The translations under genes and the position numbers were made by a program. A stretch of 64,000 nt of DNA from a bacterium HR15. Lineage in GTDB: Bacteria > Armatimonadota > Fimbriimonadia > Fimbriimonadales > GBS-DC. Numbering within the stretch: the stretch's first letter is position 1; every line of letters begins with the position of its first letter. Of the stretch, positions 37,756 through 60,649 are shown one piece after another. The stretch spans positions 1 through 64,000 of the forward strand of contig BEHR01000012.1 of NCBI GenBank assembly GCA_002898555.1. The letters are read 5' to 3'. The notes beneath the pieces are model-generated. The model did not search any database and had not been told where the DNA came from. It was given only the letters and a program-made list of their open reading frames with translations.

Positions 37756-37806
37756 ACGAGTAGCAGGGGCACAACGCCGCTGTGCCTCGACATGAAGGAG
37801 GGTCAT

Positions 37807-39999: not shown

Positions 40000-40002
40000 A
40001 CA

Positions 40003-41576: not shown

Positions 41577-41580
41577 GCCG

Positions 41581-41844: not shown

Positions 41845-42232
41845 TAGGCAAGCGGTCCGGGGACATCCCCGATTTGTCGGGGCAGAAGGGCATAAGGAGC
41901 GCGATGCAAGCGAACCACTCCCTCCAAATGGCTCAAATTTTGAACCTGTTTTTGACTAACCAGTCGTTCGACGACATTTTCACCCACCACCCACTACATC
42001 CTGTATCCCTATCCCCAACAAAAACCCTACCCCTCGTATGACAAAAACCCGCTTGTCGTCGATCGCCGACTTTCTGCCCTCTGAGTTCAAATCGCCACCC
42101 GATCGACGACAGGACTTGACTTTGTTGTCACCGATAGGGTATAGTATGGTCGCCAACGGGCAAAGTGCGTGCACCTTGACAATCGGGCTTTTTTGAGTTC
42201 AGCGGGATGGCTGACCCCCCGCGTGGGGGTTG
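41845..42232 (+). promoter_or_regulatory. CRISPR leader with promoter
   Basis: Non-coding. It contains a hairpin CCCCGA-TTTG-TCGGGG soon after cas2 and a 12-bp inverted repeat (TGTCGTCGATCG at 42054-42065 and its complement at 42100-42111). A promoter follows: TTGACT (42116-42121), 18-bp spacer, TATAGT (42140-42145). Transcription would run into the array about 80 nt later. The degenerate last repeat at the far end agrees with this being the leader side. Confidence 0.75.
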
Positions 42233-45200: not shown

Positions 45201-45388
45201 AGATCAGATTGGGGGTCAAACTTTTGTGTTTTTAGCCTACCTGTGAGGGATTGAAACACTGGCTGGAAGCGCAGAGGCGGGTGGCGGACTACGTTTTTAG
45301 CCTACCTGTGAGGGATTGAAACGCTGCTGGAAGATTTATCCATTCTTACACCTCCAAAGTTTTTAGCCTACCTGTGAGGGATTGAAAT
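42233..45388 (+). CRISPR. Main CRISPR array, 48 repeats and 47 spacers
   Basis: The 30-nt repeat begins GTTTTTAGCCTACC and ends GGGATTGAAAC; all copies I checked are identical except the last (45359-45388), whose final base is T, marking the leader-distal end. Spacers are mostly 35-38 nt (one of 46). The ATTGAAAC end is the 8-nt crRNA handle of I-B and type III systems. Spacer 9 (42790-42835) and spacer 19 (43465-43501) share 37 nt. Spacers 26 and 27 (43929-43964, 43995-44030) share GTGGTGCACCGT. Several spacers form hairpins or contain runs of eight or more G or C. Confidence 0.99.
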
Positions 45389-45521
45389 GTTCGACGCGTC
45401 GGATGGATCGGGATAGTGTTTGGAGGCGTTCGAGGGAGTGGGTGTTTGTGTGGTGGAACATGGTGTGTTTGGTGCAGGTGCTTGGGGGGTGTTTTTTTGT
45501 TGGGTGTGGAGATGGGGCTAC

Positions 45522-45577
45522 GCGATTTTCCGAACAGCCTCTCTACCTCTTGACAACGGTTGCCGATATGGTATAAT
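45522..45577 (+). promoter_or_regulatory. tRNA promoter with conserved upstream block
   Basis: GCGATTTTCCGAACA, then TTGACA (45550-45555), 16-bp spacer, TATAAT (45572-45577), then tRNA-Ser at 45591. The block matches the two other promoters at 3041 and 24738. The 140-bp stretch before it (45389-45521) is strongly G/T-rich on the plus strand and holds no supported gene. Confidence 0.8.
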
Positions 45578-45590
45578 AGCTATGTAAGGC

Positions 45591-45686
45591 GGAGGGTTGC
45601 CTGAGTGGTCGAAAGGGGCCGCCTGCTAAGCGGTTGTAGGGGGGTCATGCCCTCTACCCCGGGTTCGAATCCCGGACCCTCCGCCA
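45591..45686 (+). tRNA. tRNA-Ser(GCU)
   Basis: A 7-bp acceptor stem (GGAGGGT with ACCCTCC) closes the cloverleaf. The anticodon loop CTGCTAA gives anticodon GCT for AGC/AGU serine codons. A long variable arm (GTAGGGGGGTCATGCCCTC) is typical of tRNA-Ser, the T loop GTTCGAATC is standard, and the CCA end is encoded. tRNA genes are frequent integration sites, but no direct attachment repeat was seen next to it. Confidence 0.97.
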
Positions 45687-47247: not shown

Positions 47248-50136
47248 TCATCGCGACAGGCGCCGCCGCTTGATTTCCAGCAGGCGGCTGGTGGTATCCC
47301 CTCCGGTAGCCGGGGTGCTGGAAGGAGGGGCAGCAGAAGCGGTAGTGTCAGTCGAAGGCACTGCTTCTGGCGTGGGCGACGGTCGCGCTGTCTTTGCTTC
47401 TTGAACAGAAGCAACTATAGGGTGTCCAGTTGGTTCGGCAGGTGTTGTGGTCGTCGCGCGCACCCTGCCCTTTACATTCAGCAAGCGTGCCGTCGCAACC
47501 GGCTGCGGGGCACGGCGCGGCAGGCGTCGCCCGCGTAGCCAGCGCCATGCTTGACCCAGCAGCGCGAATGCCTCGCCCACAGGCAGCGCGACGCGCCGTA
47601 GCGTAATGTCCAGCAGCAGAAGCATTAGCGCCAACCAGAGGCACTGTCGCCACAGGTCAGACACCGACGCGCCTCGCTTGGCCACTGGGCGAAATGCCTG
47701 CGATGGTTCAGGATTCAGCTTGCCACCCGTGATTTCCGCAATGCGCGTCAGCAGGGGCAAATTGGCGCGGCTGAAGCGATATTCAGGCGGGTAAGGCAAA
47801 GCATAGCCGCGCGTGGCGGTGCGAATCGTGCCATCAGGCTGCTTTTCCACTATCGTTAGCAGATAATCGCCCACCTCACGCAGGGGGAACCGCCCCGTGT
47901 AATGTCCCGGCGCCTCTTGTTGCAGAGTGATAGTTTGTCCCTCGCCGTTGGGGAAGCTCACCCGCACCTCCGGCTGCAGAAAGTTGATTGGCTCACCTTC
48001 GGGAGTAAACGCTTGCATCTCCACGATGGCTTGCCCCCCTTCCTGGCGCACCGTTACCTGATAATCCTGACGGCTGCTTTTGCGCAGGATGGAGCGCGAG
48101 ACTTGTGTCCAGAACGGGGCGAACTCGCTCCAGCCGACCCAACGCTGTGCCCATTTCGGCTTCGCGTCGGAAGTAAAGGCGAGCGAGATGCCCAATCCAT
48201 ACTGCCAGACGGCAAGTAGCGGGTCATTTTTGTGCGTGCGCATCAGCGTACGGGCAAGCGGGCGGTCAGATGTCAAATCGTAGGCGAGCAGGGGTGGGGT
48301 CGCGTTCCAGTTGATGCCTTCCAACATTTCATCGCTGCCTGTGATTTTAGGGATAAACGCGCCCTCCTCAATTGCGGAACGGGTCATCAGGCTCACATCG
48401 GCGGTGAACAGGCGGGGCAGGTCGCGTGCACGAGTGGTCAGATAGAAGTTGCCGCCTGCTTCTTTTGCAAGTTGCTGCAGGAAACCTACATCTTTTCCTG
48501 CCCCCATCGCGACGACCGACATCGTGACGCCCTGCGCACGCAAGTGGCGGGCAATCTCGAAACAGCCCTCCTGCTCGTCGCAGTCGTCGCCATCCGCCAG
48601 CAGGATGAGATGTTTGACGCGCGTATTTTGTGCCAGCATCGCCTGCGCGGCAAACTCCAGCGACGGTCGGCAATAGATGCCGCCACCCCCCGCATAGATG
48701 CGCGAAATCTGGTCAATCACGCGCTCTTTATTGCTCGCAGGTTGAATCGGGGCGAGCCAGTCAGCTCCGGTGCCGCTGACAATCACGCCGAACTGATCCA
48801 TCGGACGCAACATTTTGAGCGTCTCGATGGCGGCACGCCCCGCCAACTGCACCTTTGGGATGCCGTCTTCCGGCACCCCCATACTACCTGATATATCGAT
48901 AATAATCACCACCGTAGCAGCGGGGAATACCTTGCGCTGGCGCACATTGAGATCAACAGGCAATATTTCAGCGATGGGTGTTTCGTAGTAGCCGCCGGGC
49001 AGGAAGGAGTTCTCACCGCCAATCATGGCGAAGCCGATACCGGTGTCGCGCACCGCGCTTTGAATGGTGAGCATCTGTTGAGGTGAGAGGGCGACGGCGG
49101 GGAAATCATGGAATAGAATAGCATCGTAGCCTTGCAGCTCGTCGGCGCGGGCGGGGAAAGTATCTGGCGTTGCACGCACCACCTCCAAGTTGTTCGCCTT
49201 GAGGGCGCGCTCCAGCGAGCGGGTTGGGTCGGGCGTGCCTTCGGCAAGCAGCACGCGCGGTTTGCCTCGCACTTGCACGAAGGTGCGCCCCACATTATTG
49301 CGCGGATCCTCATCCGGCTGCACCTCCAGGGTAGCACGATAGCGATTGAAACCTTCCTTCTCGGTGCGAATGGGCACAACCACCACATTTTTGCCCGGTG
49401 TGAGCGACACGGGCACGCTTTTGATGGGTTTGCCATCGCGGTCGATGTGCAACACGCCTGTGGCATGCTTGCGGGCTTCGATCACCACGCGTAGGTTGAA
49501 CGGCTCTCCGATTTTGACCTCGCTGGGCGCTTGCGTCTCCAGCACCAGCGTCTCCGATTCGGGTGTGGCGGAGGCGAGTTGCACCGTGTCGATCTCGATA
49601 TTTTCGGTGGCGGCGACGGCAGCGGCGTCCAGCGCGTTGCCCTCCGTCTCGTTGCCATCAGACAATAGCACGATGCGCTTATCTTTTCCATCGGGGAACA
49701 GTGCGCTGGCGAGGCGAACAGCCGCTGCAATGTTCGTGCCCTGTCTGTCGGGCGCGGATAATATTGGGGGCAGTTCACGCGTGTTGGTCGGAGCGAAATC
49801 GATAAGCGCGTCGCGCCCAAACACAACGAGCGCGGCTTGATCCTCCTCCCCGATGGCTTTCAGCGACTGTTGGAGATACGCGCGCGCTGCCTGCTTGCCT
49901 TTGTCGGGAATGCTGTCGGAGGCATCCAGTAGGAAGATAGTGCAGATACCCCGATTCTGGCGCACTGCTTGCAGCCCGGCGAGCGCCAGCACTATCAGAA
50001 GCACCACCAGCGAACGCAGCACCAGCACGACCCGCTTGCGTGCGCGACTGATGCCGAGCATGCGTCGCCCGCTCCACCACACCCCCGCAATCAGCACGGG
50101 GAGCAACAGCAGATAGCTCGGCTCCACGAACCGCAT
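47248..50136 (-). CDS. Large membrane protein with two VWA domains (BatA/GATase-like)
   Basis: 962 aa. Two TM segments near the N-terminus and RARKRVVLVLRSLVVLLIVLA give the layout of BatA/aerotolerance-operon-like proteins. The first VWA starts IFLLDASDSIPDKG (about 69-82), the second VVIIIDISGSMGVPEDG (about 405-421) with an intact DxSxS metal site. A glutamine-amidotransferase-like domain (VLLAEGTPDPTRSLERAL..., GENSFLPGGYYE) lies between. The C-terminus has a further TM and a Pro/Thr-rich tail. The -10 TACAAT (50151-50146) is 9 nt from the ATG, so translation is near leaderless. Independent of the CRISPR operon ending just upstream. Confidence 0.85.
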   Translation of the reverse strand: MRFVEPSYLLLLPVLIAGVWWSGRRMLGISRARKRVVLVLRSLVVLLIVLALAGLQAVRQNRGICTIFLLDASDSIPDKGKQAARAYLQQSLKAIGEEDQAALVVFGRDALIDFAPTNTRELPPILSAPDRQGTNIAAAVRLASALFPDGKDKRIVLLSDGNETEGNALDAAAVAATENIEIDTVQLASATPESETLVLETQAPSEVKIGEPFNLRVVIEARKHATGVLHIDRDGKPIKSVPVSLTPGKNVVVVPIRTEKEGFNRYRATLEVQPDEDPRNNVGRTFVQVRGKPRVLLAEGTPDPTRSLERALKANNLEVVRATPDTFPARADELQGYDAILFHDFPAVALSPQQMLTIQSAVRDTGIGFAMIGGENSFLPGGYYETPIAEILPVDLNVRQRKVFPAATVVIIIDISGSMGVPEDGIPKVQLAGRAAIETLKMLRPMDQFGVIVSGTGADWLAPIQPASNKERVIDQISRIYAGGGGIYCRPSLEFAAQAMLAQNTRVKHLILLADGDDCDEQEGCFEIARHLRAQGVTMSVVAMGAGKDVGFLQQLAKEAGGNFYLTTRARDLPRLFTADVSLMTRSAIEEGAFIPKITGSDEMLEGINWNATPPLLAYDLTSDRPLARTLMRTHKNDPLLAVWQYGLGISLAFTSDAKPKWAQRWVGWSEFAPFWTQVSRSILRKSSRQDYQVTVRQEGGQAIVEMQAFTPEGEPINFLQPEVRVSFPNGEGQTITLQQEAPGHYTGRFPLREVGDYLLTIVEKQPDGTIRTATRGYALPYPPEYRFSRANLPLLTRIAEITGGKLNPEPSQAFRPVAKRGASVSDLWRQCLWLALMLLLLDITLRRVALPVGEAFALLGQAWRWLRGRRLPRRAPQPVATARLLNVKGRVRATTTTPAEPTGHPIVASVQEAKTARPSPTPEAVPSTDTTASAAPPSSTPATGGDTTSRLLEIKRRRLSR

Positions 50137-50154: not shown

Positions 50155-51189
50155 CTAATCAAATGGCAAGCGTCTCTCGATCCAGCTGAGGTTTACCACA
50201 GGCATATACTGTGCACCCATCCAGTGGCATACGCGCAGATGCGCACTGCGCGAGAACGCCATTCCCAGTGCAAACGCCAATGCATCGGGACAGATGAGGC
50301 AGATATCCACTTGCTTAAACGCGTTGACCCACGGCTTTGCCCATCGATAGAGTGTTTGAACATACGAGAGCCAGTCGTCTTGAGGCAGGGCGGATGAGTG
50401 ATAGAACGCTACGCTGGTTGCTGTCGAATAATCAGGATGGGCATTTAGGTCGGGTTGATGGCGATCGGAGAAAATCCAGTGCAGAATTAGGTGGTCGCCC
50501 TTGTCAGCCGGGGGGCGGATGTCAGGTGGTTGCTGTTCAAAATCGATGGGCTGCTTAGGTTCTTCGAACAGCACACGCGGATGGGTCAAATCCATCACTT
50601 GGTAAGGCGCACCCTCCGCTGCCTGATGATAAAGAATAACAGAGCGGCGTAACCCGACGGCTGCGCCCAGCCCGAACGCCAGCGGCAACACGATATTCGG
50701 GCGAATGTGATAGATGATGCCTGAGTAGTGAGCAGGTAGCCAGCGCTGAAGTCGTGCATCGACCTCCTTATCCCACTCGTGGATAAGCTGTTTCAGCGCT
50801 TCCTGCCAGTCCGTCTTTTTCGAGGAGTAACGAACCGCCGTATCGAGCCGAATAACTAATTCCTGACGATGAACAGGGGCATGAGCATCTATCACCTTCA
50901 CGCTCTTTTCAAGGCGAAGCGATTCGACCAGCCGCTCAAACTTCGTGTGTGCCAGCTCGCTGTTGTCTTCCTCTACAAAGAGCAGAGGCACTCTTAAGGG
51001 CGAAGGGCGCTGCCAGAAGCCTAAAATCAATACCCCGATGACAATGATTATCCCGACGAACCGTATAACAGCAGCAAACTCGCTCCGACCCATATCCACA
51101 CTCAGATCAGCAATCATCTGTGCCAATCCGAACGTACCAATCGTGATCAGCAGCTCCCACTCAACAAGCAAAAGTTTAAGTTTCTGCAT
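50155..51189 (-). CDS. Two-TM SAVED-domain protein, putative type III CRISPR effector
   Basis: 344 aa. Two N-terminal membrane segments (about 11-28 and 40-60) lead to a soluble domain with the SAVED pattern: GIIYHIRPNIVLPLAFGLGA, then VILYHQAAEGAPYQVMDLTH, VAFYHSSALPQDDWLSYVQT and VDICLICPDALAFALGMAFS. SAVED domains are CARF relatives that bind cyclic oligonucleotides; TM-SAVED fusions are known among CBASS effectors. It starts inside the upstream gene (14-nt overlap), so it is translated with the HEPN-like gene as the last gene of the type III-D operon. Likely role: membrane disruption or signalling after binding cyclic oligoadenylate. That role is inferred. Confidence 0.75.
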   Translation of the reverse strand: MQKLKLLLVEWELLITIGTFGLAQMIADLSVDMGRSEFAAVIRFVGIIIVIGVLILGFWQRPSPLRVPLLFVEEDNSELAHTKFERLVESLRLEKSVKVIDAHAPVHRQELVIRLDTAVRYSSKKTDWQEALKQLIHEWDKEVDARLQRWLPAHYSGIIYHIRPNIVLPLAFGLGAAVGLRRSVILYHQAAEGAPYQVMDLTHPRVLFEEPKQPIDFEQQPPDIRPPADKGDHLILHWIFSDRHQPDLNAHPDYSTATSVAFYHSSALPQDDWLSYVQTLYRWAKPWVNAFKQVDICLICPDALAFALGMAFSRSAHLRVCHWMGAQYMPVVNLSWIERRLPFD

Positions 51190-52435
51190 CGATGCTCACC
51201 TCTTCCTTGAGGAAACCATGTTCCTCAAGGATTCTGAGATCCAGTTCCAATTCTTGAGGTAGTAAGTGGCGTACAATTTCATCGTCGTGTGGCACTACTA
51301 ATATCGCATTTAATTTATGATTATTGTTATTAATATCCGACATGAAAAAGCAGATTTTGCCAAGATATGCTTCAAATTTTGTTATATTAGAGTATATATT
51401 TATATCAGTAAAAACAAGTTTTACAAATTGTTTATTCTCCGAAGCTATCTCCACCTCTTGACGCCCATAAACATCGCTGCCAGCACGGCAAATAACACCA
51501 AGCAAAGGTATTTGTTGCAATTTAGTCCATCCTTCATGCAGCTTCTTTAGTGCTTGCACAAGGTTTTCGATCTGTTCACGATAAACTTCTGGTAGCGCTG
51601 TGCCAGAAGTGAAGGTTCTAGTAGGGTGGCGTACAGCGTTTCTATACTCTCTAATTTTATTTAATTGATCTGATATTTCTTTATTAACAAAATATAAAAA
51701 TTGATATAAATACCCTTTATAATTTGTGCTTATTCGATCGCATCTATCCAATTGCTCCAATATTTTTGTTGATATGTCTTTTGCTAATTTTATTTTGTCA
51801 TTCCATGAAGAGTTGTTTAATTTTTTACTATATTGATTATCAGTGAATCCCATCAATTCATGAGATATTTCTGATAGAAAAATAATAAGAATATCGTTAA
51901 ATTTCTCTAATAGAACTAACGCACGATCAATACTCTCATGTATTACTTGTATACATTCACTGAAATCAAGAGGATTGGTGAATTGTGTATAAAGGTAGCA
52001 AGCAGATTGCGCTTCCTGTGCCTTGCGAATAGCTTCGTCCAACACTATCTGTAGTCCCATATTAGGGTAAGGAAAGTGCGAAAAATGAGAAAGCAATAAC
52101 GCCCTGAGGTTTGCACAATTCAGAGATTGATCTCCCAGTAGTAAATCATCAATCCTGGCGTTATCCAATTTACTTTCAATAAAGGAAGCAAAGTCCCCTT
52201 CGCTAAGTTGGCTTATTAATGTTTTATAATCAAGGCTTTTTAATAAATCAAATATATCAATATCACTATCACTGAACAATAAGCCATGTTCTCGTAATAA
52301 CTGCTTGAGATTATTCCGGGTGTCAGGGGAAAGCTCTCGGCGTTCCCAGGCTTCAATTAGCCATGGTATGAGGCTTTGAGGCCCAAATTTATAAATGCTT
52401 ATCTTTTTACTCTGATTGCTCTGAGCTTGGCTCAT
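51176..52435 (-). CDS. AT-rich protein with HEPN-like RNxxxH motif, candidate type III effector
   Basis: 419 aa. It is much richer in AT than its neighbours (many AAT, ATA, TTA codons), so it is probably recently acquired. The product is mostly helical. Residues 263-271, EYRNAVRHP, follow a long helix (YLYQFLYFVNKEISDQLNKI), the usual place of the Rx4H active site in HEPN ribonucleases. The last about 110 residues are beta-rich (GRQEVEIASENKQFVKLVFT), perhaps a second domain. It overlaps the small gene upstream by 4 nt and the SAVED gene downstream by 14. No CARF or SAVED domain of its own is visible, so it could be regulated through the TM-SAVED partner. I find no known family by eye. Confidence 0.6.
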   Translation of the reverse strand: MSQAQSNQSKKISIYKFGPQSLIPWLIEAWERRELSPDTRNNLKQLLREHGLLFSDSDIDIFDLLKSLDYKTLISQLSEGDFASFIESKLDNARIDDLLLGDQSLNCANLRALLLSHFSHFPYPNMGLQIVLDEAIRKAQEAQSACYLYTQFTNPLDFSECIQVIHESIDRALVLLEKFNDILIIFLSEISHELMGFTDNQYSKKLNNSSWNDKIKLAKDISTKILEQLDRCDRISTNYKGYLYQFLYFVNKEISDQLNKIREYRNAVRHPTRTFTSGTALPEVYREQIENLVQALKKLHEGWTKLQQIPLLGVICRAGSDVYGRQEVEIASENKQFVKLVFTDINIYSNITKFEAYLGKICFFMSDINNNNHKLNAILVVPHDDEIVRHLLPQELELDLRILEEHGFLKEEVSIDAET

Positions 52436-52752
52436 AATCTAACTCCCGCCCGAAGCGCTTTGGCCAATCTCACTGCCCAACCCCAGGCGCGGGCTTTGTC
52501 GACGCCCGTCAGTGAGGTGTTCCAGCGATTCCAGATTTCGCGTAGGTTCCGAAAGTGACGCTGGCTGCGCCGGCTGCGTGGTGGTGGATTATGGGCAAGT
52601 GTCTCCAGATAGCGCGCCATTGCCTCCTCACTGCAGCCTTTGAACAGATAGTGGTCGACCAGCTTTTCTGATTCGGCGAGGTCAACTTCTAATCGCACCA
52701 ATTCGCGTGCAACCCATTCTGCCTGTTTGCTGATGCTCTCCCAGTCGGGCAT
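52432..52752 (-). CDS. Small helical protein of the type III-D accessory tail
   Basis: 106 aa with AGGAGG before the ATG. It begins MPDWESISKQAEWVARELVR and is entirely helical, with a basic centre (PPRSRRSQRHFRNLREIWNRW). The size and charge resemble type III small subunits (Cas11), but a separate Cas11-like gene exists at 56041. It may therefore be a second small subunit or an adaptor for the downstream effectors. It overlaps the HEPN-like gene by 4 nt. Function not assigned. Confidence 0.5.
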   Translation of the reverse strand: MPDWESISKQAEWVARELVRLEVDLAESEKLVDHYLFKGCSEEAMARYLETLAHNPPPRSRRSQRHFRNLREIWNRWNTSLTGVDKARAWGWAVRLAKALRAGVRL

Positions 52753-52763
52753 GTCTGCACCTC

Positions 52764-53792
52764 CTAATAGGGGTCAGCAGGCGCCTGATTATGTTCCAGC
52801 CCACTTTCCTCGAGAATCTGCGCCAGTTCCTCCAGAAGCGTTGTCAGCAGCACCTCGTCCCTTTCGGCTTGGTTCACCCATTCGTTGATATGCCTGTCGA
52901 GTTCCTCGCCCTGCAGCAGGGATGTCTGCCCACCAAGCCGTCCCCGATGCCGCACACTCGAGCTGCCTTGCATCAAGTGAACTGTTTTAAGTTCGATCTT
53001 CACGGAGCCAAGTCCGGCGGGTTTGCCGCCGCCCAGTTTGATGGGAAAGGGATATTGTGGGTGCAGCCCGAGCGCTGCCAGCAGCAGTCCCAGTTCCGCT
53101 TTGGACAAGTTTAAAAAGTGCACGCGCGTGGAGATGCGAGTACCTGTTCTGATTGCCACACGCAGGTCGGCTCCTTCTGCGCGTCTGGCATGGAAATAGA
53201 ACTTGCGCCCTATCGCTTCGCCGCGTTGGTTCAGATAACGAGGGGGTAGCCCGCGATTGCTGCGCGCAGGCGTCCAGAGCAGAGGTGAACCAACCAGCAC
53301 AAGCGAGCCAGGAGGGATGAGCGCGTCTTCAAAGCTCAGCTGTCCCTGATAATTTTGTGCGCCGAACAGGCGGCAGGCAGGGCAGAGCGCGCTGGCATTA
53401 TTGCAGGGGTTGAGCCGCGAGGGCACATGAGGGCGTGAGTTGCGCCCTGCAAGGCGCAGGCAAGAGGGCGAAATCGCCTCCAGAAGGGAGCGCACTGTGC
53501 CTTTGAAGGAGGCACCCGGAATCACCCCCACACGACGCGGTGCGCCAGCCTGATCGCGCGTAGGGTTTGTCACCTGCAGCGCAGCTAATGATTCCTCACC
53601 CGCGGCGCGCACAAAGTCAAGCCTGCCAGATGCCACATGCACTGGGGTCAAGGTCTTCAGCTCCAGTTCCAGCCAGCCAGTGAACTGCTCGCGGTTTATC
53701 GTTGCTTGTCCGGCAGGCTTCTCACGACTCGGCGACTGGCTATGGAAAGGAACAAATGCATATGGTTTCTCCGAATCGTTCTCGTATCGCAT
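52764..53792 (-). CDS. RAMP-superfamily Cas7-like protein, type III
   Basis: 342 aa. RAMP features: LELELKTLTPVHVASGRLDF, PGASFKGTVRSLLEAI, CPACRLFGAQNYQGQLSFED and the Gly-rich GGGKPAGLGSVKIELKTVHL. CNNASALCPACRLFG carries the cysteine pair seen in Csm3-like subunits. It is longer than the other Cas7s of the operon and could sit at the 3' end of the backbone. AGGAGG precedes the ATG and 11 nt separate it from the next gene. Confidence 0.8.
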   Translation of the reverse strand: MRYENDSEKPYAFVPFHSQSPSREKPAGQATINREQFTGWLELELKTLTPVHVASGRLDFVRAAGEESLAALQVTNPTRDQAGAPRRVGVIPGASFKGTVRSLLEAISPSCLRLAGRNSRPHVPSRLNPCNNASALCPACRLFGAQNYQGQLSFEDALIPPGSLVLVGSPLLWTPARSNRGLPPRYLNQRGEAIGRKFYFHARRAEGADLRVAIRTGTRISTRVHFLNLSKAELGLLLAALGLHPQYPFPIKLGGGKPAGLGSVKIELKTVHLMQGSSSVRHRGRLGGQTSLLQGEELDRHINEWVNQAERDEVLLTTLLEELAQILEESGLEHNQAPADPY

Positions 53793-53794
53793 CG

Positions 53795-54343
53795 CTATCT
53801 ACCTCCTGATTCTACCATAAGAATCTGTTTGGCTACTGCCTGCAAGGCACAGTAGCGAGTGTAGCGTCGCCTCCCCAACGGGTCGTAATAATGACGCACT
53901 TGTACGACCGCGACTTGCCCCTTCTGGACAGGAATGCCGTAACAGAAGCGGCGCGGGAAGGCTATTTCCACCAGTTCATCCGAGGGCGTACTACTTTTTG
54001 CCGACGGTTCGCCCAGCAGAATATGCTGTGATTCACGCACCTCAAAGCCCTCTGCTATACATTGCCAGTCCTGCCTGCTTGCCAGAGTTTCGGTTTGTTC
54101 GGTCAGTAATAGATATTCAATGGTTGATCCTGTCATCAGTGCACGCAACTCAGCGTCTGGCGAAAAGATTCGCAACTGTTCCCACTCAGCGCTGGGCAGC
54201 GCAGGAGGCAGTCGCTGAGGTAGTTCGATATGGCTGATGTGCCATCCGAACCACCATGCACTCTCGGCGGGCAGATTGAGCGCGTTCCAGAGGCTCAGCG
54301 CGTCGGTTGGCTCGCCTTCCCATCGCCAGATAGAGCCTTTCAT
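53795..54343 (-). CDS. csx19: Csx19-like protein (type III-D)
   Basis: 182 aa from ATG 54343, which overlaps the upstream stop (54340) as ATGA. The C-terminal strands FPRRFCYGIPVQKGQVAVVQ, VRHYYDPLGRRRYTRYC are like the VR-x-Y-x-D-x-G ending of Csx19 (TIGR03984) proteins that mark subtype III-D. The N-terminus (MKGSIWRWEGEPTDALSLW) also fits a short beta-rich domain. The role of Csx19 is not known with certainty; it is probably a component of the III-D complex. Confidence 0.55.
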   Translation of the reverse strand: MKGSIWRWEGEPTDALSLWNALNLPAESAWWFGWHISHIELPQRLPPALPSAEWEQLRIFSPDAELRALMTGSTIEYLLLTEQTETLASRQDWQCIAEGFEVRESQHILLGEPSAKSSTPSDELVEIAFPRRFCYGIPVQKGQVAVVQVRHYYDPLGRRRYTRYCALQAVAKQILMVESGGR

Positions 54344-55260
54344 GGGGAGATGCCTCCCTGTTCGATCTCCTCTACCCATAGCGGCGCAAGCGTTTCGAAC
54401 CACCGACGGATGTCGGCGTCCTCCCTGCTTATCACAGTGTGGTAAAGCCCCTCATGCTGCGCCTGTGGAAAGCCATCCAGCGCATGGTGGTCGGGTGAAG
54501 GCAGGTTGTAGCGGCGCCGTATTTCCTCGCTGGCAAGTGCGCCGATGCCGACGATGCCATTGTTGCCATCTGGTGGGAGTTGCATGAAGCGAAAGCGCGC
54601 CCAGTTAAAGTTCAGGCGCACTCGTCCAAGCCCACGCGACTTAGCGTGTCCCAGGGCGACCAGCCCATCCGCTATATCAAGGAGCGCAGCGCCCAACAGA
54701 CCCAGTTGCCCCACCGTGAAGTTGCGCAGCACCAGCCTGCCCAGAAAAAGCGCGCTGGTCACAGTCTCCATCTGGAATGGACCAACCGCCACAGCGCCCG
54801 TCACGCGGTCGATGGCGACGCCATAGCGTGTCTCTGTGAGCGGTTCTAGCTCCCTGTGGGGATACAGGTCTCCGATCTGCAGGCGTGACGCAATTGCGGT
54901 GTTGCCGAACAGGCGACAGGCATAGCATGCCTCGCGATAGGCTCGGGCTCCGCTGATCTCGCTCTCCTTCAGGTCCTTGCGCTTGATGCAGCTCTGGTCG
55001 GTGATTTGGCAGGCAAGGTCATCCCGAAGGGAGCGTAGCAACCTTTCTGCGTGAGCGCGCAGCACGCCTCTCAGGCTGGAACCAGGGATATATAAGGTAT
55101 CCTCTGGCTCGCCGTGCGCGTTGCGTCGTGTTGTGCGCACGAACTCCATATCGGGGCGCGCGGGGTCAATCCCCGCTTTCTCGCCTGACTTAATAATCAG
55201 TGGGGTGCGCGGGCTAATGGCTATCTCCAGCACCAGCTCATTATAGAGTCGTCCATGCAT
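54340..55260 (-). CDS. RAMP-superfamily Csm3-like backbone protein (third copy)
   Basis: 306 aa from ATG 55260 with GGAGGGAG upstream. Hallmarks are TPLIIKSGEKAGIDPARPDM, YIPGSSLRGVLRAHAERLLR (the Cas7 helix after the Gly-Ser loop), CYACRLFGNTAIASRLQIGD and GHAKSRGLGRVRLNFNWARF. Csm3-type Cas7 subunits bind the crRNA and cut target RNA at six-nt intervals with an Asp in the thumb region; here the Asp in SGEKAGIDPARPDM is a candidate. Confidence 0.88.
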   Translation of the reverse strand: MHGRLYNELVLEIAISPRTPLIIKSGEKAGIDPARPDMEFVRTTRRNAHGEPEDTLYIPGSSLRGVLRAHAERLLRSLRDDLACQITDQSCIKRKDLKESEISGARAYREACYACRLFGNTAIASRLQIGDLYPHRELEPLTETRYGVAIDRVTGAVAVGPFQMETVTSALFLGRLVLRNFTVGQLGLLGAALLDIADGLVALGHAKSRGLGRVRLNFNWARFRFMQLPPDGNNGIVGIGALASEEIRRRYNLPSPDHHALDGFPQAQHEGLYHTVISREDADIRRWFETLAPLWVEEIEQGGISP

Positions 55261-55262
55261 GC

Positions 55263-56039
55263 TTACTCCCTCCTCAGTTCGTCGAGGAATGCGCGAATGC
55301 ACCCCTGTTGAAAGGATTCGCTCAGGGATTCCGTTGTGCCGTTCAGCAAGTACTGCTTCAGGTTTTCATGTGTGAGCCACTCGTACTTTATCTTCTGGAG
55401 GCAGACGCGCCCCAGCCCGCGCCCTTTGAAGCCTCCCAGCAGGATCTCGCCACGCTCCAGTTCGCGTATTGCCACAAGAAGCAGCCCCAGCTCGGCTGGG
55501 TTTAAATTCTCGGCGACGATCTCCATATGAAAGCGTGCGCCTGCGGGCAGCGCTTCGAAGTCGAACTTGTTCGCGACGCTTTCCTTTTCCCGATCGATGG
55601 CAACGCTATCGCGCAGTTCTGGCTTCAGATCCGCCACGCATTCGGCAAGGTAAAGGTCGCGTAGACGCACACGCGATGCCAGCCATGGCGAGCCGAACAC
55701 ACGGCAGACGCGACATGAGCGTTCATACACTTGCGCGTCTTCCAATCGTTTGCGCTCTTCCGATGGAAGACACCATTCTTGAGGACGAGTAGGATTGCAT
55801 GCGCCCTTACCATTGCCTGCATCAGGTTCAAAGGTACGCACGATGCGTTCGATATGGCTGCGCAAGGCACCGCGCAGGCTGGAGCCGGGAATAAAAGGCT
55901 TCCCTTCGGGCGTGCGCATTACGGGCAGGTCGGTCGCGGTGGGCAAGGCGGTTTCCCCTCCGGCACCTATCCGTAAGCCTGTCTCCGCCACAAGCTCCGC
56001 GCGAATATACAGACGATTCTCGAAACACTGCCAGACCAT
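55263..56039 (-). CDS. RAMP-superfamily Csm3-like backbone protein (second copy)
   Basis: 258 aa from ATG 56039 with AAGGAGG upstream. The same signature appears: LVAETGLRIGAGGETALPTA, TDLPVMRTPEGKPFIPGSSL, RGALRSHIERIVRTF, CRVCRVFGSPWLASRVRLRD and GGFKGRGLGRVCLQKIKYEW. The cut-site Asp could be that in TATDLPVMRT. It follows the Cas11-like gene by one base. Confidence 0.9.
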   Translation of the reverse strand: MVWQCFENRLYIRAELVAETGLRIGAGGETALPTATDLPVMRTPEGKPFIPGSSLRGALRSHIERIVRTFEPDAGNGKGACNPTRPQEWCLPSEERKRLEDAQVYERSCRVCRVFGSPWLASRVRLRDLYLAECVADLKPELRDSVAIDREKESVANKFDFEALPAGARFHMEIVAENLNPAELGLLLVAIRELERGEILLGGFKGRGLGRVCLQKIKYEWLTHENLKQYLLNGTTESLSESFQQGCIRAFLDELRRE

Positions 56040-56040
56040 T

Positions 56041-56436
56041 TTATGAACCTCCTTGCCTAGTTTGAGGTGGAATCCTATCAAGATATTCGAGAGCGACAAG
56101 AGCACGGCGCATGAAGCCCAACAGCAGCACCAGTTTCTCCATCCCAAGTTCACCCTCCGGCTGGAGTCGCTTTTTTACATAGTCAGCAACCTGCTCGCCC
56201 AATGTTCTGTTTGCCGAATCTTTTGCTCCCCAGAACTCTTGCGACTCCTTGCGTGCCATCTGATAGCGCAGCCAGTTGAGGAACATGGCGAAGGAGCGTG
56301 TTTGCTGGGCGGCGTCGATCGCGTTAGACATCTGAGTGCGTCCTGTCTCGCCGCCCTTTAGATGCTGGCGCCGGCTCTCTATGATTCGCTCGGCTTCGAC
56401 CACCAGTTCATCGATCTCCTCAGGTTTCAGTTTCAT
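56041..56436 (-). CDS. Cas11-like small subunit of the type III-D complex
   Basis: 131 aa, helical throughout and basic in the centre (RSFAMFLNWLRYQMARKES, QVADYVKKRLQPEGELGMEK LVLLLGFMRRALVALEYL). The size, helicity and place between csx10 and csm3 fit the small subunit that lines the complex opposite the backbone. No sequence motif proves it. Confidence 0.65.
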   Translation of the reverse strand: MKLKPEEIDELVVEAERIIESRRQHLKGGETGRTQMSNAIDAAQQTRSFAMFLNWLRYQMARKESQEFWGAKDSANRTLGEQVADYVKKRLQPEGELGMEKLVLLLGFMRRALVALEYLDRIPPQTRQGGS

Positions 56437-56442
56437 CGTTCA

Positions 56443-57627
56443 TCACCTGCCTTCAGAAAGGGACGGTGTTTCAAGGGGAAAGGACGGGCAGAGGGTGAAC
56501 TGCCCGTAGCCTTCCCCTGTGCGTTCACCAATGCCCTGTTCCTCCAATCTCTGCAGCCATTGGGTCAGGGCATCGAAATCGTCCTGATCATAGATAAAGG
56601 TAAAGATGCTACCGGGCGCTATCGCTGGGGTGAGAGGTTTGGGAAGCCCCCATGCGGGTGACCAGCCACTCACCAATTCACATTCCACACGCGTGGCGTT
56701 TTCGTGGGGCTGTACGCTGTTTGGCAAATCGGGAAGATAGCGGCGAAGCGTGTCTGGCGTGAGCGCGGATGTGGTGCTGCCTGCCTCGCGCACAATCACG
56801 GGGCTGAACGCTGCCAGCGTTATGACAGGCCTATTCAGGTGTTGCTGGTAGGCTTTAAGCCGTTCGGCGATGGAGGTAGGCTCACACGCGCGCCACTCGA
56901 TGTCGATCAGCCCGAACCCACGCGACCGCGCACTGCCGATTCGCAGACTGAGTCTGTTTTCATGAGCCCCAATGGCGTTCATCAGGCGCATGAACGCCTC
57001 CCAGTGCTCGTCGGAGGCGAACCGCCAAATGCCAGAGAACAGCTGGGGGAGTATCTCGTTGCCATGCATCGAAGGCGACTCGATGGCTTCGATCACATAG
57101 AGAATCGCAGTCTCTGCGGTCTCGGTAAGGCGGCTTAGCCCCACACGCACATATTGTCGCTTTGGGGGCATTTCTACTGGTTGCCAGCCGTTGCTGGTGC
57201 GGACAAGGTAGCCGCGCGCTCGCTCCAGTCGCCCACCGCAACAAGGGCATTCCATGCCCCAGCGTTCGCCTCGGATGAGATGCGGAAGCGTATCAAAAAG
57301 ATGGTTGCTATTCTGGCGACAGCGAAGTGCGGTGGTGGGGGCAGGAATTGTTTCGCCCTCACCTGGATAGAGAAAACCGAAGCGAACTCCATCTGCCCGC
57401 AGGAAGCACTTTTCGAAATCCCCTTGTAGGGTTGGCGGGAGATCGTTCAGGGCGCGTCCACTGGTACGATGGGTACCGAATCCTTCAAGGATCCGCTGGG
57501 CGATAGCGCCGCGGATGATGCCGCCCGGAATATAATCCAGCGAGCGTCGCACATTTTGGCGACCGATCATTCCATCTCCCAGCACCAGCGATTGCTGAGC
57601 GCGAACGATAACTTGCACACGCTTCAT
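56443..57627 (-). CDS. csx10: Csx10 (Cas5-like RAMP, type III-D)
   Basis: 394 aa. MKRVQVIVRAQQSLVLGDGM, YIPGGIIRGAIAQRILEG and the C-terminal Gly-rich EEQGIGERTGEGYGQFTLCP match Csx10, which occupies the Cas5/Csm4-like end of type III-D complexes and holds the crRNA 5' handle. MECPCCGGRLERARGY contains a zinc-binding-like CxxC. It overlaps the upstream Csm3-like gene by 4 nt. Confidence 0.86.
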   Translation of the reverse strand: MKRVQVIVRAQQSLVLGDGMIGRQNVRRSLDYIPGGIIRGAIAQRILEGFGTHRTSGRALNDLPPTLQGDFEKCFLRADGVRFGFLYPGEGETIPAPTTALRCRQNSNHLFDTLPHLIRGERWGMECPCCGGRLERARGYLVRTSNGWQPVEMPPKRQYVRVGLSRLTETAETAILYVIEAIESPSMHGNEILPQLFSGIWRFASDEHWEAFMRLMNAIGAHENRLSLRIGSARSRGFGLIDIEWRACEPTSIAERLKAYQQHLNRPVITLAAFSPVIVREAGSTTSALTPDTLRRYLPDLPNSVQPHENATRVECELVSGWSPAWGLPKPLTPAIAPGSIFTFIYDQDDFDALTQWLQRLEEQGIGERTGEGYGQFTLCPSFPLETPSLSEGR

Positions 57628-58259
57628 GGCGATAACACCTCCTTTAGCAGCGCACGATGGTCTATCTCGGTGTTAGGCGATGGATAGAGCAGGCGAGTAA
57701 TCTCCACCTGCACACGCCCCAATCCACGCGCTTTGTTCCCGCCCAAATGTGTGATAAGCCCTATTGCACCGATAAGCCAGCCCAGCTGATCAGAGAGGAG
57801 CCAGCCTTCGACGGTACCGACGAACTCAACATCGCTGACGGGTACGGTTTCCAACAGGAAAAGCCTCTGCGCTTCCACTGTTTGCAAATCGCGATTAATG
57901 CCGATGCCGACGCGCACCGGTAGTTCAGGAACCGCCTGCGCAGGTTTCAGATCTGAGAAGTGAATGGCACTTTGGCGTGATGGGTTGCCAAATATCTGGC
58001 ATGCGAGACAGAAGGTTCCATCTTCCAACGGACACATGCGCGCAGGGTTGGGCGGTTGGCAAACTGGATGTCCTAATGCAGAAAGTAATCGCTCAAGGTG
58101 GGCGCGCACACGCCCACGGAAGGAGGATGCGGGAATGAACGGTTCGCCACGCGCATCCACCTCCACGCAACGATCCACCAAGGGCACGCTGCGCCCAGGA
58201 CCCGCCGTATGCAGGTCGGCTAATAATCTCACTTTGAGCTCCATCCAAAACGGTTGCAT
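57624..58259 (-). CDS. RAMP-superfamily Csm3-like backbone protein (first copy)
   Basis: 211 aa from ATG 58259 with GAGGTAG upstream; a second Met at 58244 is possible. VRLLADLHTAGPGRSVPLVD, FIPASSFRGRVRAHLERLLS, CLACQIFGNPSRQSAIHFSD and GGNKARGLGRVQVEITRLLY give the Csm3 pattern; the Asp in VPLVDRCVEVD is the candidate RNA-cleaving residue. It sits 13 nt after cas10. Confidence 0.88.
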   Translation of the reverse strand: MQPFWMELKVRLLADLHTAGPGRSVPLVDRCVEVDARGEPFIPASSFRGRVRAHLERLLSALGHPVCQPPNPARMCPLEDGTFCLACQIFGNPSRQSAIHFSDLKPAQAVPELPVRVGIGINRDLQTVEAQRLFLLETVPVSDVEFVGTVEGWLLSDQLGWLIGAIGLITHLGGNKARGLGRVQVEITRLLYPSPNTEIDHRALLKEVLSP

Positions 58260-58272
58260 CGGTCTACCTCGC

Positions 58273-60540
58273 TTAGCGTAAGGTCTTGGCGATCTCCAGC
58301 AGATCCCACAAGGGAGCGAACCAATGTTTCTGATTGGCAGTTTCACCTGTCAAGGCACGCGCCAGCTCGCTAACAGGTAGCAAAGGCTGGGCACTGTTCG
58401 GGGTAGCTCCTGACTCAAAAAGAGCGCGTTGCAGCTGATTCAGCACAGTGAAGAGCGTTGTACGCTGGTCATGTTCATCCCTCCGATCGACACGGGTTTG
58501 CTGATAGAAATAATGGAGCATGGCAGCCAGCAGCGGTTGATTGACGAAGGGTTCGGTCAGTCGTTGAAGGTTGCCCAAATAGTTCTGTCTGACAATCTGT
58601 TGGGCGCACTGGAGTAGTGCGTCCAGCTCAGTTGCTGTGAGGGGGCGCAAGGAAAGACTGACCGTAAGCGCGGGTATGGCTTCATGGCTGACGGTGTGCC
58701 TGCGATAGTGTGTCTTGCGATAGACCTCCATATCGGCAGGTATCTGTTCCGCCGTAGGCGCGACGAGGAAGTCGACGACGCCGCGCCCGCGCGGCTTGAC
58801 CAGCTTCTTTGCGCTTTTCATTAGCTCGCTCTCGGTAAAGTGTACCGTGCGATGCACGGGGGCTTTCTCGTCACTGATTAAACAGCCCACCCCAAAGCAG
58901 ATGGGGGTGTCCTTTGGGATAAAAGCCTCGCCGTTGCCCTTCTGGAACTCAAGATCAGTCAGCTCGAGAAAGTGCTGGCAGAAACGGAGCGCAATCCCGC
59001 CCCAGGCAAAGAGGGCAAAGTCATCGCCTCCCATTACCAGCACCTCGAAGGGCAAATGTTGAAAATTCGCTTCCGATTCGCTGATGCCTTTGCCAAGGGC
59101 AAGGGCGGTAGCTGCTTGCACCAGCAGGCGCGCCCGGTGGGTCCATTGCAGACCATGTGCCAGCGAGCGAAGCTTCCTGACAATTTGTCCAAAATTACTG
59201 CCATCGCCGTAGATAAACGCAATCAGTTTATGCTCGCGCGTGGCGGGAACCAGTGCGTTGAGGCTTGGTGCGACCGATAGATTCAGTTTATTGCCCAGCC
59301 ATTGCTTAATCTGGTGGGCTTTTTTTACTCGCTCGGCTCGACCGGTCTGGCGTTTTTCGTTGCAGGCGGGGCAGGCTGGTTCCATTTCGCCATCGGGCGC
59401 ATATACATAATGTTCTGCAGGACGAGTTTTGCAGAAGGCGCAACGCAACTCGAACGGCAGCGTTTCAAAAGCGGGTTGTTCCGCATGGTAGCGGTCGCGT
59501 TCGATCGCTTGAAGGAATGTGCTCATCGCGCCGCTGTAATCATTGAGCAATTGGGCCAGTGGCGTTGGTTGCACTGCGGCGGCAAAGAAAGCGATGTGGG
59601 TCTTGCGATAAGCCTCCGCTTTTAGCCGTTCCTGCCAGTGCATGCCCTGCTCGGTTGAATGATCCGCTTTTAGCCGTCCCTGCCAGTGCATGCCCTGCTC
59701 GGTTGAATGAGGCGCCAGAAAAATGAGGGTGGATGCAGCCGCTTGCAAGATGACCTCCGGACCGAGTTTTTGTGCGATCTGGTCAGCAAGCTTCTCCATC
59801 AGGTCGTCCAGCAACTCCGATGCACCGCGGATTTCAGGTAGCCCTGGCGACTCAAACACATATTGCTTGATGCGCTGCGCTGCCAACCCGACAATATAGA
59901 TAAGAGGTTCCTCACCCAGAGAGGCTGCGTCGCCTGAGTGAATCGCATCGATAAGGGTTTGATAAGGCTGAAACAGATCGGGGCAGCTCCCACCCTCAAG
60001 CAAATAGCGGGCTAAGTTATGTGCAGGTTCTGTCAGTTGCGCCTTCACATCGGGTATGTTCAGAAGTTCGTGCACCAGTGCGCCGAGACGCGCCTCATGC
60101 ACCAGCTCATCGGACGCACCTTGAGCGCGGAGCGCAACATTTAGTAGGGCAGCGACCGCCAGATGATGATCGGAGATAAGCACCGCCGGGTCTGTTTGCG
60201 ATGGTAGCAGCGGAGGGTGTCGCATCTCGTCCAAAAAGTGACTGCGCAATGGGTTGTGACGCAGCACGATAACACCGGGCTCACTTTGCTCGAACAGCGG
60301 CGCCCCTCCAATGATGAGCTGCTCCTCTCGCGTTTGCTCCTCCCGCCCGAATCGAAGAGGGAACACGCGTTCATAATACCTTTGCCAGAAACAGGCTGCG
60401 GCGTCTGCTTTGGCTCTGACATCGTGAGCTTGAGCAATCTCTGTACCCAACTCTGCTGCCAACTGCCCACGCACAGCCTGGTCCCATGCCGAATCCCAGC
60501 GGTAGATAATTCCTGTGAACCGATCTGTCCACTCTGACAC
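58273..60540 (-). CDS. cas10: Cas10, type III-D large subunit with active cyclase motif
   Basis: 755 aa from GTG 60540 (AAGGAG upstream). Palm 1: KLIAFIYGDGSNFGQIVRKL (about 438-457). Zinc finger: CAFC and CPAC (367-370, 390-393 region). Palm 2: the GGDD cyclase motif at 504-507, MGGDDFALFAWGGIA, intact, so cyclic oligoadenylate synthesis from ATP is expected when target RNA is bound. No HD nuclease motif is seen in the N-terminus; the closest segment (LGALVHELLN, about 152-161) has HE. DNase activity is therefore doubtful. A 48-bp tandem duplication (59618-59713) repeats HSTEQGMHWQ-RLKA within the protein. Confidence 0.93.
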   Translation of the reverse strand: MSEWTDRFTGIIYRWDSAWDQAVRGQLAAELGTEIAQAHDVRAKADAAACFWQRYYERVFPLRFGREEQTREEQLIIGGAPLFEQSEPGVIVLRHNPLRSHFLDEMRHPPLLPSQTDPAVLISDHHLAVAALLNVALRAQGASDELVHEARLGALVHELLNIPDVKAQLTEPAHNLARYLLEGGSCPDLFQPYQTLIDAIHSGDAASLGEEPLIYIVGLAAQRIKQYVFESPGLPEIRGASELLDDLMEKLADQIAQKLGPEVILQAAASTLIFLAPHSTEQGMHWQGRLKADHSTEQGMHWQERLKAEAYRKTHIAFFAAAVQPTPLAQLLNDYSGAMSTFLQAIERDRYHAEQPAFETLPFELRCAFCKTRPAEHYVYAPDGEMEPACPACNEKRQTGRAERVKKAHQIKQWLGNKLNLSVAPSLNALVPATREHKLIAFIYGDGSNFGQIVRKLRSLAHGLQWTHRARLLVQAATALALGKGISESEANFQHLPFEVLVMGGDDFALFAWGGIALRFCQHFLELTDLEFQKGNGEAFIPKDTPICFGVGCLISDEKAPVHRTVHFTESELMKSAKKLVKPRGRGVVDFLVAPTAEQIPADMEVYRKTHYRRHTVSHEAIPALTVSLSLRPLTATELDALLQCAQQIVRQNYLGNLQRLTEPFVNQPLLAAMLHYFYQQTRVDRRDEHDQRTTLFTVLNQLQRALFESGATPNSAQPLLPVSELARALTGETANQKHWFAPLWDLLEIAKTLR

Positions 60541-60649
60541 TGCTTTTCTCCTTGCAAATAAGGTTTCGACGGAGTGGTGCCGATTCCTGCTTAAAGTAGT
60601 GGGGATCTGTCTCTATAAACGCCCGCATACTGGGTATACTGCCGCTGAA
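60541..60649. promoter_or_regulatory. Divergent promoter region between cas10 and the beta-CASP gene
   Basis: It contains CGATTCCTGCTTAA (60581-60594), shared with the region before the beta-propeller gene (31352, 31371), lying 41 nt upstream of cas10. The plus strand has TATACT (60635-60640) nine bases before the ATG of the nuclease. The shared 14-mer may be an operator. Confidence 0.5.

What the first reader, a model, noticed from the sequence alone, without database searches (positions are those of the whole stretch)
50155..52752. Accessory tail of the type III-D operon: small helical protein + HEPN-like protein + two-TM SAVED protein
Three overlapping genes extend the type III-D operon beyond its core subunits. 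One has two membrane segments and a SAVED-like cyclic-nucleotide sensor, one an RNxxxH motif, one is small and helical. The 4-nt and 14-nt overlaps indicate coupled translation. Cas10 keeps GGDD, so a cyclic oligoadenylate signal is expected. A split effector (membrane sensor plus separate soluble RNase) would differ from the usual single CARF-HEPN proteins such as Csm6.
Basis: partly seen in the sequence, partly recalled or inferred. Interest (0 to 1): 0.85.

Follow-up and report, generated by a model that had tools for sequence, protein, structure and literature searches.

The report
Modular accessory tail of CRISPR III-D
At the end of a type III-D CRISPR operon of a bacterium related to hot-spring Armatimonadetes sit three accessory genes: a known small helper, a very fast-changing protein that probably cuts RNA, and a membrane alarm sensor. 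Comparison with relatives shows that the last two come and go separately, so they are unlikely to be the two halves of one split weapon.

Summary
The three genes, their coordinates and their 4-nt and 14-nt overlaps are real. The 106-aa gene is the known family Csx21 (PADLOC 1.6e-39). The 344-aa gene is a CalpL-type SAVED protein without Lon, with one strong and one borderline membrane segment. The 419-aa gene matches no curated family. It has a conserved RNxxxH motif and two relatives score weakly against HEPN-type models across that motif, so HEPN is likely but unproven; its AlphaFold model failed (pLDDT 50).

A split SAVED + HEPN effector is not supported as a conserved unit. Three of five full-length copies of the middle gene lie in genomes without any SAVED4 match; in one (phylum of Ammonifex) complete CARF-HEPN effectors follow instead. 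SAVED relatives lie beside Cas10 without it, and SAVED is broken in three loci. The host already has a CARF-HEPN in a separate III-A locus.

Unexpected: the middle gene was found only behind Csx21. It is the most AT-rich stretch of the window (GC 0.36; other operon genes 0.53-0.60), and its alleles are barely alignable where neighbouring genes are 37-62% identical. Csx21's confident model resembles type III small subunits (Cas11), suggestively only. New variant of a known kind.

The parts
52432..52752 (-). Csx21, 106 aa, five-helix protein; conserved basic and Trp residues
   Evidence: PADLOC PDLC01524 1.6e-39; model pLDDT 89; VIA-align rows rich in type III small subunits and Cas10 C-terminal ends, Z up to 8.1
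51176..52435 (-). 419-aa putative HEPN protein: helical N-terminus, central helices carrying RNAVRH (residues 265-270), C-terminal region with predicted strands (low confidence); AT-rich (GC 0.356, GC3 0.31)
   Evidence: no curated family; relative in G562 E 8e-9; invariant R, N, H in five members; HEPN-type hits in two relatives; GC
51626..51643 (-). RNAVRH motif (R265-H270) of the 419-aa protein
   Evidence: alignment A3
50155..51189 (-). 344-aa membrane SAVED protein (CalpL-type SAVED4, no Lon domain)
   Evidence: PADLOC SAVED4 1.3e-16; PDB 8b0r/7qda 2e-5 over residues 56-331; hydropathy
52764..53792 (-). last Cas7-like (Csm3-type) core gene, directly upstream of Csx21
53795..54403 (-). Csx19 (III-D marker)
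   Evidence: PADLOC 5.3e-16
54340..55302 (-). Cas7-like (Csx7/Csm3) core gene
55263..56153 (-). Cas7-like (Csx7/Csm3) core gene
56041..56436 (-). Csm2-like small subunit (Cas11)
   Evidence: PADLOC Csm2 3.8e-20
56443..57627 (-). Cas5 of III-D (Csx10 family)
57624..58346 (-). Cas7-like RAMP core gene
   Evidence: Pfam RAMPs 1.9e-19
58273..60540 (-). Cas10 with GGDD at residue 504; no typical HD-nuclease motif seen by eye (bare HD pairs at 39 and 690)
   Evidence: PADLOC Cas10 9.9e-43; motif scan

Best explanation
The tail is modular. Csx21 is a standing accessory subunit of this III-D lineage, possibly a Cas11-like protein that sits on or near the effector complex. The 419-aa protein is a fast-evolving HEPN-type protein, probably an RNase or abortive-infection effector, tied genetically to Csx21 and not to the SAVED protein. 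The SAVED protein is a separate, optional alarm responder: on target-RNA recognition Cas10 (GGDD) makes a cyclic oligoadenylate, most likely cA4 by analogy with CalpL; the SAVED domains bind it and stack, and the membrane segments are driven together to disturb the membrane. Shown here: gene order, overlaps, families of Csx21 and SAVED, the conserved motif, independent occurrence, AT-richness and divergence. Inferred: RNase activity, membrane damage, the nature of the signal, and docking of Csx21 on the complex.
For: Csx21 hit. The middle gene follows Csx21 on the same strand in 7 of 12 Csx21 loci readable downstream: 5 full length, 1 whose two ends lie at two contig ends, 1 remnant; over 291 genomes of the phylum its profile gave full-length matches in 4, all at Csx21 loci. 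The G562 copy behind Csx21, E 8e-9, is followed by two complete CARF-HEPN proteins. No SAVED4 match in G003, G004, G008, G562. SAVED relatives lie about 100 nt before a cas10 in G181 and G183, genomes without a match of the middle gene. SAVED aligned to CalpL keeps counterparts of H345, H474 and R361 (H188, H322, R205), residues described in PMC11417357 (passages). HEPN support: invariant R, N, H; weak hits across the motif in G011 and G004. GC 0.356 against 0.529-0.602 in the ten other operon genes; lowest of the operon genes compared in 5 of 5 loci.
Against: The 419-aa model is poor (pLDDT 50) and no HEPN chain is among the rows shown by its fold searches. No member passes a curated HEPN cut-off, three of five members have no HEPN-type hit at all, and G011 has an unrelated hit (DUF643, 8.4e-4) as strong as its HEPN_Swt1 hit. 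'Only behind Csx21' is partly circular: the members were found through Csx21, and a profile of such divergent proteins can miss alleles elsewhere (it missed G010 and G012). H188 is Q in two SAVED relatives and H322 is D in one. In the four loci of this family where both genes or their remains are seen (window, G010, G011, G012) SAVED does follow the middle gene, so a local link is possible. In G562 a CARF-HEPN gene is even more AT-rich (0.331) than the slot gene (0.354). CalpL and AcrIII-2 SAVED domains are ring nucleases, so this one may remove the signal. Broken SAVED frames could partly be assembly errors.
Confidence: 0.5

Rival explanations
1. Split effector: the membrane SAVED protein senses cOA, and on oligomerising recruits or activates the separate soluble HEPN protein as its RNase.
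For: Adjacent, overlapping genes in the window; the same order in G011, G010 (SAVED remnant) and G012 (remnants of both). No sensor domain was recognised in the 419-aa protein.
Against: Three of five full-length HEPN-slot carriers lack SAVED4 genome-wide. SAVED occurs without the slot gene. In G562 the slot gene precedes self-sufficient CARF-HEPN proteins. SAVED is frameshifted in G011 while the slot gene is open.
Confidence: 0.15
2. Complex-docked HEPN: Csx21 is a Cas11-like adaptor that places the HEPN protein on the III-D complex, so that it is activated by target binding and not by a cyclic nucleotide.
For: Csx21 model pLDDT 89; 15 of the top 21 VIA-align rows come from type III complexes or Cmr5-type crystals and fit small subunits or the C-terminal end of Cas10, Z 5.1-8.1 over 86-101 of 106 residues (chain identities inferred from size and range, rank 21 least certain). 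Slot gene seen only with Csx21.
Against: Foldseek alone is insignificant (best E 2.4); Z below 13 is common for helical bundles and unrelated rows reach 7.4; profile comparison of Csx21 with the operon's own Csm2-like protein and with the Cas10 C-terminus finds nothing. Five of 12 readable Csx21 loci lack the slot gene, so Csx21 has a role without it.
Confidence: 0.2
3. Toxin-antitoxin-like pair: Csx21 or another operon product restrains an Abi-type HEPN toxin, released when the system is damaged.
For: Weak Abi-type and HEPN-type hits in two relatives (PHROG 2158 'abortive infection resistance protein' 0.0016; HEPN_Swt1 7.6e-4); AT-rich and fast-changing, as many toxin genes are (recalled).
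Against: Csx21 persists without the slot gene in G003, G104, G291, G555 and G591.
Confidence: 0.1
4. The SAVED protein is a membrane-held ring nuclease (Crn5-like) that clears cA4, and not a killing effector.
For: CalpL SAVED and viral AcrIII-2 SAVED are ring nucleases (PMC11417357, PMC12751052, passages read); the counterpart of R361 is invariant in the six aligned sequences and those of H345 and H474 are kept in the window.
Against: The described stand-alone SAVED ring nuclease (AcrIII-2, 9r8s, 243 aa) is shorter; a membrane anchor is not obviously needed for cA4 clearance. Both activities may coexist, as in CalpL.
Confidence: 0.15

Closest known systems
CalpL (Lon-SAVED protease, with CalpT/CalpS)
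   Same: SAVED half aligns over residues 56-331 (PDB 8b0r/7qda 2e-5); PADLOC SAVED_LON_TM 1.3e-16
   Different: No Lon domain (the alignment starts at CalpL residue 216); CalpT/CalpS were not searched for by profile, and nothing like them was recognised among the adjacent genes
SAVED4--SAVED_TM class of PADLOC; 'transmembrane SAVED effectors' predicted in the review PMC9704534 (passage)
   Same: Membrane segments plus SAVED4, no enzyme domain found (3.7e-15)
   Different: No difference found; this looks like a member
Csx21 (PADLOC PDLC01524, 'CAS-III-A; associated'; PDLC01083 'Unknown function')
   Same: 1.6e-39 over residues 3-99
   Different: Here in a III-D operon (another PADLOC Csx21 model is labelled III-D too)
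Csm6/Csx1 CARF-HEPN ribonucleases
   Same: HEPN-type motif; type III accessory
   Different: No CARF or SAVED in the 419-aa chain; the host has a separate CARF-HEPN in a III-A locus
Cas11 small subunits (Csm2, Cmr5; SsoCsm chain 8bmw_B)
   Same: Model of Csx21 aligns at Z up to 8.1
   Different: No detectable sequence-profile similarity; the operon already has a Csm2-like gene
Abi-type / Swt1-like / DUF4145 HEPN proteins
   Same: Weak hits in relatives G011 and G004, all spanning the motif
   Different: The Pfam hits are below curated cut-offs; flanking regions unmatched

Membership tests
SAVED4 / SAVED_TM class | SAVED domain alignable to CalpL | tested here: met
   (Pfam SAVED stays below its cut-off: 15.1 of 26.2 bits; NCBIfam SAVED 30.5 of 33)
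SAVED4 / SAVED_TM class | N-terminal membrane segments | tested here: met
   hydropathy 2.91 and 1.64; the first segment is borderline; no dedicated membrane predictor was run
SAVED4 / SAVED_TM class | binds cyclic oligoadenylate | not testable with these tools
   only residue conservation
CalpL | Lon protease domain | tested here: not met
   344 aa; matches start at CalpL 216 and at profile position 196
HEPN superfamily | R-x4-6-H motif at a conserved place | tested here: met
   RNxxxH in four of five members; the fifth (G008) has R-x6-H there; R262, N266, H270 columns invariant
HEPN superfamily | four-helix HEPN fold | tested here: inconclusive
   pLDDT 50; motif predicted at the end of a helix before a last long helix; no HEPN chain among the rows shown
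HEPN superfamily | curated profile match | tested here: not met
   best 20.2 bits of 27.5 (HEPN_Swt1, G011) and 19.2 of 23.1 (DUF4145, G004)
Csm6/Csx1 | CARF and HEPN in one chain | tested here: not met
   no CARF hit in the 419-aa protein
Csx21 | profile match and type III operon | tested here: met
Cas11 small subunit | fold | tested here: inconclusive
   Z up to 8.1, 15 of top 21 rows, but a helical bundle
Cas11 small subunit | sequence-profile relation to Csm2 or the Cas10 C-terminus | tested here: not met
   hhalign probability 0.2 and 0.07, in percent

The most novel reading that the evidence does not exclude
Csx21 is a Cas11-like docking subunit that holds a hypervariable HEPN RNase on the III-D complex, giving a type III RNase arm switched on by target binding itself, beside and independent of the cyclic-nucleotide arm (SAVED or CARF). 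The extreme divergence of the HEPN alleles would reflect an arms race with phage inhibitors or exchange of alleles at this one slot.
Probability: 0.15. Interest if true: 0.85.

Novelty: new variant of a known kind. Interest (0 to 1): 0.5.

Why it matters
It replaces an attractive but unsupported 'split effector' by a testable picture: a little-known small Cas protein (Csx21; no paper in the held library contains the name) marks a slot for a fast-evolving, AT-rich, probably HEPN gene without any recognised cyclic-nucleotide sensor. If that protein works on the complex, type III systems would have an RNase branch outside cOA signalling; if it is an Abi-type toxin, it would be a second, independent suicide layer within one operon.

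Tried and rejected
Fold searches of the 419-aa model gave mainly long-helix matches (pore-forming toxins, BAR domains, S23-type bundles, 14-3-3) and are disregarded because the model is poor; no HEPN row was among the 50 shown in either, which excludes nothing. Profile search of PDB with five members: best E 0.073, a designed protein. Plasmid records: no match for any of the three proteins; phage records were not searched. Viral contigs: no relative of Csx21 or SAVED; the 419-aa protein was not scanned there. A Csx21 search of 199 relatives of G562 found only G562 itself. Pfam Biopterin_H hit of the 419-aa protein (0.012) rejected as a chance helix match. Weak partial matches of the slot-gene profile in G019 and G044 and in G206 and G229 rejected as short pieces in frames of unlike length. 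Pairwise scores between slot proteins against shuffles: window-G562 z 20 and window-G008 z 10.4 are clear; window-G004 z 3.8 (1 of 200 shuffles reach it) is borderline; window-G011 is not significant (z 0.8, 35 of 200), nor are most of the six pairs among the others (best z 3.1). G011 is tied to the window only through the G012 remnant (z 30.9 to G011, z 7.0 to the window). Global identities of slot proteins (22-25%) are no better than shuffled sequence (mean 22, max 26 in 50 shuffles), so I rely on scores. The scan of genome contigs for Csx21 used two narrow patterns (8 loci), so the taxonomic range is a lower bound. Frames read by eye as Cas10, Cas6, CARF-HEPN, Csm2 and Csm3 in the first round were checked by profile afterwards.
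Full report
Observation. The three minus-strand frames are as reported: 52432-52752, 51176-52435 and 50155-51189. The junctions read ATGA (4-nt overlap) and ATGCAGAAACTTAA (14-nt overlap). They follow a III-D operon: Cas10 with GGDD, Cas7-like genes, Csx10-type Cas5, a Csm2-like small subunit and Csx19. Near relatives found by the searches bear titles such as Fimbriimonadales or Armatimonadetes bacterium, so the host is most likely of that group; that they come from hot springs is recalled.

Small protein. It is Csx21 (PADLOC PDLC01524, 1.6e-39); no paper in the held library contains that name. It occurs in 9 of 291 genomes of the phylum, in 4 of 398 genomes drawn from the phylum of Ammonifex, and in 1 of 199 relatives of G562, namely G562 itself. 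An AlphaFold model from 8 sequences is confident (pLDDT 89). Foldseek finds nothing significant (best E 2.4), but in the structural re-alignment of 213 of its candidates 15 of the top 21 rows come from type III complexes or a Cmr5-type crystal, and fit small subunits or the C-terminal end of Cas10 by chain length and range (Z 5.1-8.1; these chain identities are inferred or recalled, rank 21 least certainly). Unrelated rows reach Z 7.4 and 6.6 in the same list, Z below 13 is common for helical bundles, and profile comparison with the operon's Csm2-like protein and Cas10 C-terminus is negative. So 'Cas11-like' is a lead, not a result.

Middle protein. P0001 matches no curated family (PHROGs) and no structure by sequence. 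A single-protein search over 101 related genomes finds only itself. Yet a gene of 397-431 codons sits directly behind Csx21 on the same strand in G004, G008 and G011, and in G562 of the Ammonifex phylum. The G562 protein is a clear homologue (22% over 358 columns, E 8e-9). Scores against shuffles: window-G562 z 20, window-G008 z 10.4, window-G004 z 3.8, window-G011 z 0.8. G012 keeps an N-terminal remnant that ties G011 (z 30.9) to the window (z 7.0), and G010 carries the two ends of a G008-like copy at two contig ends (z 12.8 and 5.0). Of 13 Csx21 loci, one (G009) ends inside Csx21; of the 12 readable, 5 have a full-length slot gene, 1 its two ends on two contigs, 1 a remnant, and 5 none by reading the frames behind Csx21 (G003, G104, G291, G555, G591). 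A profile of the five full-length proteins over 291 genomes matched 6 at E 0.01: the 4 full-length copies at Csx21 loci, and two weak partial matches that I rejected. This profile missed the G010 and G012 pieces, and its members were found through Csx21, so copies elsewhere cannot be excluded.

Is it HEPN? R262, N266 and H270 are invariant in the five aligned members; RNxxxH is literal in four, and G008 has R-x6-H at that place; in three of five it is the only R-x4-6-H of the protein. Two relatives have weak hits, all spanning the motif: G011 to HEPN_Swt1 (7.6e-4), G004 to DUF4145 (0.0012), RiboL-PSP-HEPN (0.1), a CARF-HEPN-Csx20 model (0.002) and a PHROG 'abortive infection resistance protein' (0.0016) (that DUF4145 is HEPN-type is recalled). 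Against this: the Pfam hits are below cut-off, the window, G008 and G562 proteins have none, and G011 also hits DUF643 at 8.4e-4. The AlphaFold model failed (pLDDT 50, four sequences) and its fold searches cannot be used. I put HEPN at about 0.75.

Composition. The gene has GC 0.356 against 0.529-0.602 for the ten other operon genes, GC3 0.31 against 0.56-0.67, and holds the most AT-rich 1-kb stretch of the window. In the other four loci it is again the lowest of the operon genes compared (0.387, 0.430, 0.433, 0.354), although in G562 the CARF2-HEPN gene further on, not part of that comparison, is lower still (0.331). Core genes, Csx21 and SAVED of the Fimbriimonadales loci are 37-62% identical to the window's, while slot proteins are barely alignable; among the four full-length relatives the best match of the window's slot protein lies in another phylum. 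This fits fast evolution or allele exchange at one slot.

SAVED protein. Its residues 56-331 align with CalpL (8b0r/7qda, 2e-5) and with PADLOC SAVED4 classes (1.3e-16 and 3.7e-15), without Lon. From the alignment, CalpL H345, H474 and R361 correspond to H188, H322 and R205 (my reading; residues checked). R205 and H244 (a possible counterpart of H392, not aligned to it) are invariant in the six aligned sequences; H188 is Q in two, H322 is D in one of the five that cover it. PMC11417357 (passages) describes those CalpL residues. Relatives occur in 10 of 291 genomes, the window's included: in this III-D slot in the window, G010, G011 and G012; about 100 nt before a cas10 in G181 and G183 (profile hits 1.2e-19 and 2.4e-122; the SAVED gene is truncated in G183); beside a cas6 in G164 (3.7e-76); and without recognised Cas neighbours in the stretches fetched for G006 (at a contig end), G015 and G179. 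SAVED is split over two frames in G011, ends after some 40 codons in G010 and is cut after about 64 codons in G012, where a second fragment lies at another contig's end. Membrane SAVED effectors are already predicted in a review (PMC9704534, passage).

Split effector? A SAVED4 profile over seven whole genomes matches G000, G011 and G012, and not G003, G004, G008 or G562; G004, G008 and G562 carry the slot gene. In G562 it is followed by two complete CARF-HEPN proteins. In G008 the next gene is on the other strand; in G004 the contig ends. A CARF-HEPN profile matches 6 of the same 7 genomes (not G011), the host included, at G000:C15, beside Csm2 and Csm3 of III-A type. A split SAVED-HEPN effector is therefore not a conserved unit; a local link in some Fimbriimonadales remains possible.

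Mechanism. Most likely there are two arms: cOA from Cas10 activates the membrane SAVED protein (by analogy with CalpL and membrane CARF proteins), and the HEPN-type protein acts as an RNase or Abi-type effector associated with Csx21. How it is triggered is not known; docking on the complex through Csx21 is the boldest reading that I cannot exclude.

Literature. Searches for Csx21, SAVED + type III + HEPN + transmembrane, CalpL, new cas families, HEPN + III-D + Cas11, membrane SAVED and the III-D complex showed in their listings no title or abstract start describing this trio or a Csx21-HEPN pair. I read passages of PMC11229360, PMC11417357, PMC9704534, PMC12669027, PMC12751052 and PMC9945777; the others only in listings. 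Most subscription papers, among them the 2019 survey of accessory type III genes that I recall, are not held.

Noticed in passing
window 59615-59710: 48-nt tandem duplication (98% identical, 16 codons) inside cas10.
   Followed up: no
window 60515-62032 (+): Divergent frame next to cas10 whose translation looks like an MBL-fold/beta-CASP RNase; no profile was run.
   Followed up: no
window 34662-45600: A second Cas operon with Cas3-, Cas1- and Cas2-like frames (read by eye, type I) and a CRISPR array of at least 48 repeats; one 68-nt repeat-spacer unit occurs twice (42759-42826 and 43434-43501).
   Followed up: partly
window 47248-50136 (-): A 962-aa frame with VWA-like sequence (by eye) starts 18 nt after the SAVED stop on the same strand, so it could be co-transcribed; the frames behind SAVED in G011 look different.
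   Followed up: partly
L055 3701-5290: In G104 a longer Csx21 variant is followed not by the slot gene but by a protein with a CARF-PD-(D/E)XK-type hit over its nuclease part (2.7e-7): the slot behind Csx21 may take other nucleases.
   Followed up: partly
L082 5117-9809 (G000:C15): A separate III-A-type locus in the host genome with Csm2, Csm3 and a CARF-HEPN protein.
   Followed up: yes
L026 9582-10745, L033 391-513, L031 7006-7197: SAVED gene split over two frames, ended early, or cut off in three relatives of the same family, while the Csx21 frame is open in all three genomes.
   Followed up: yes
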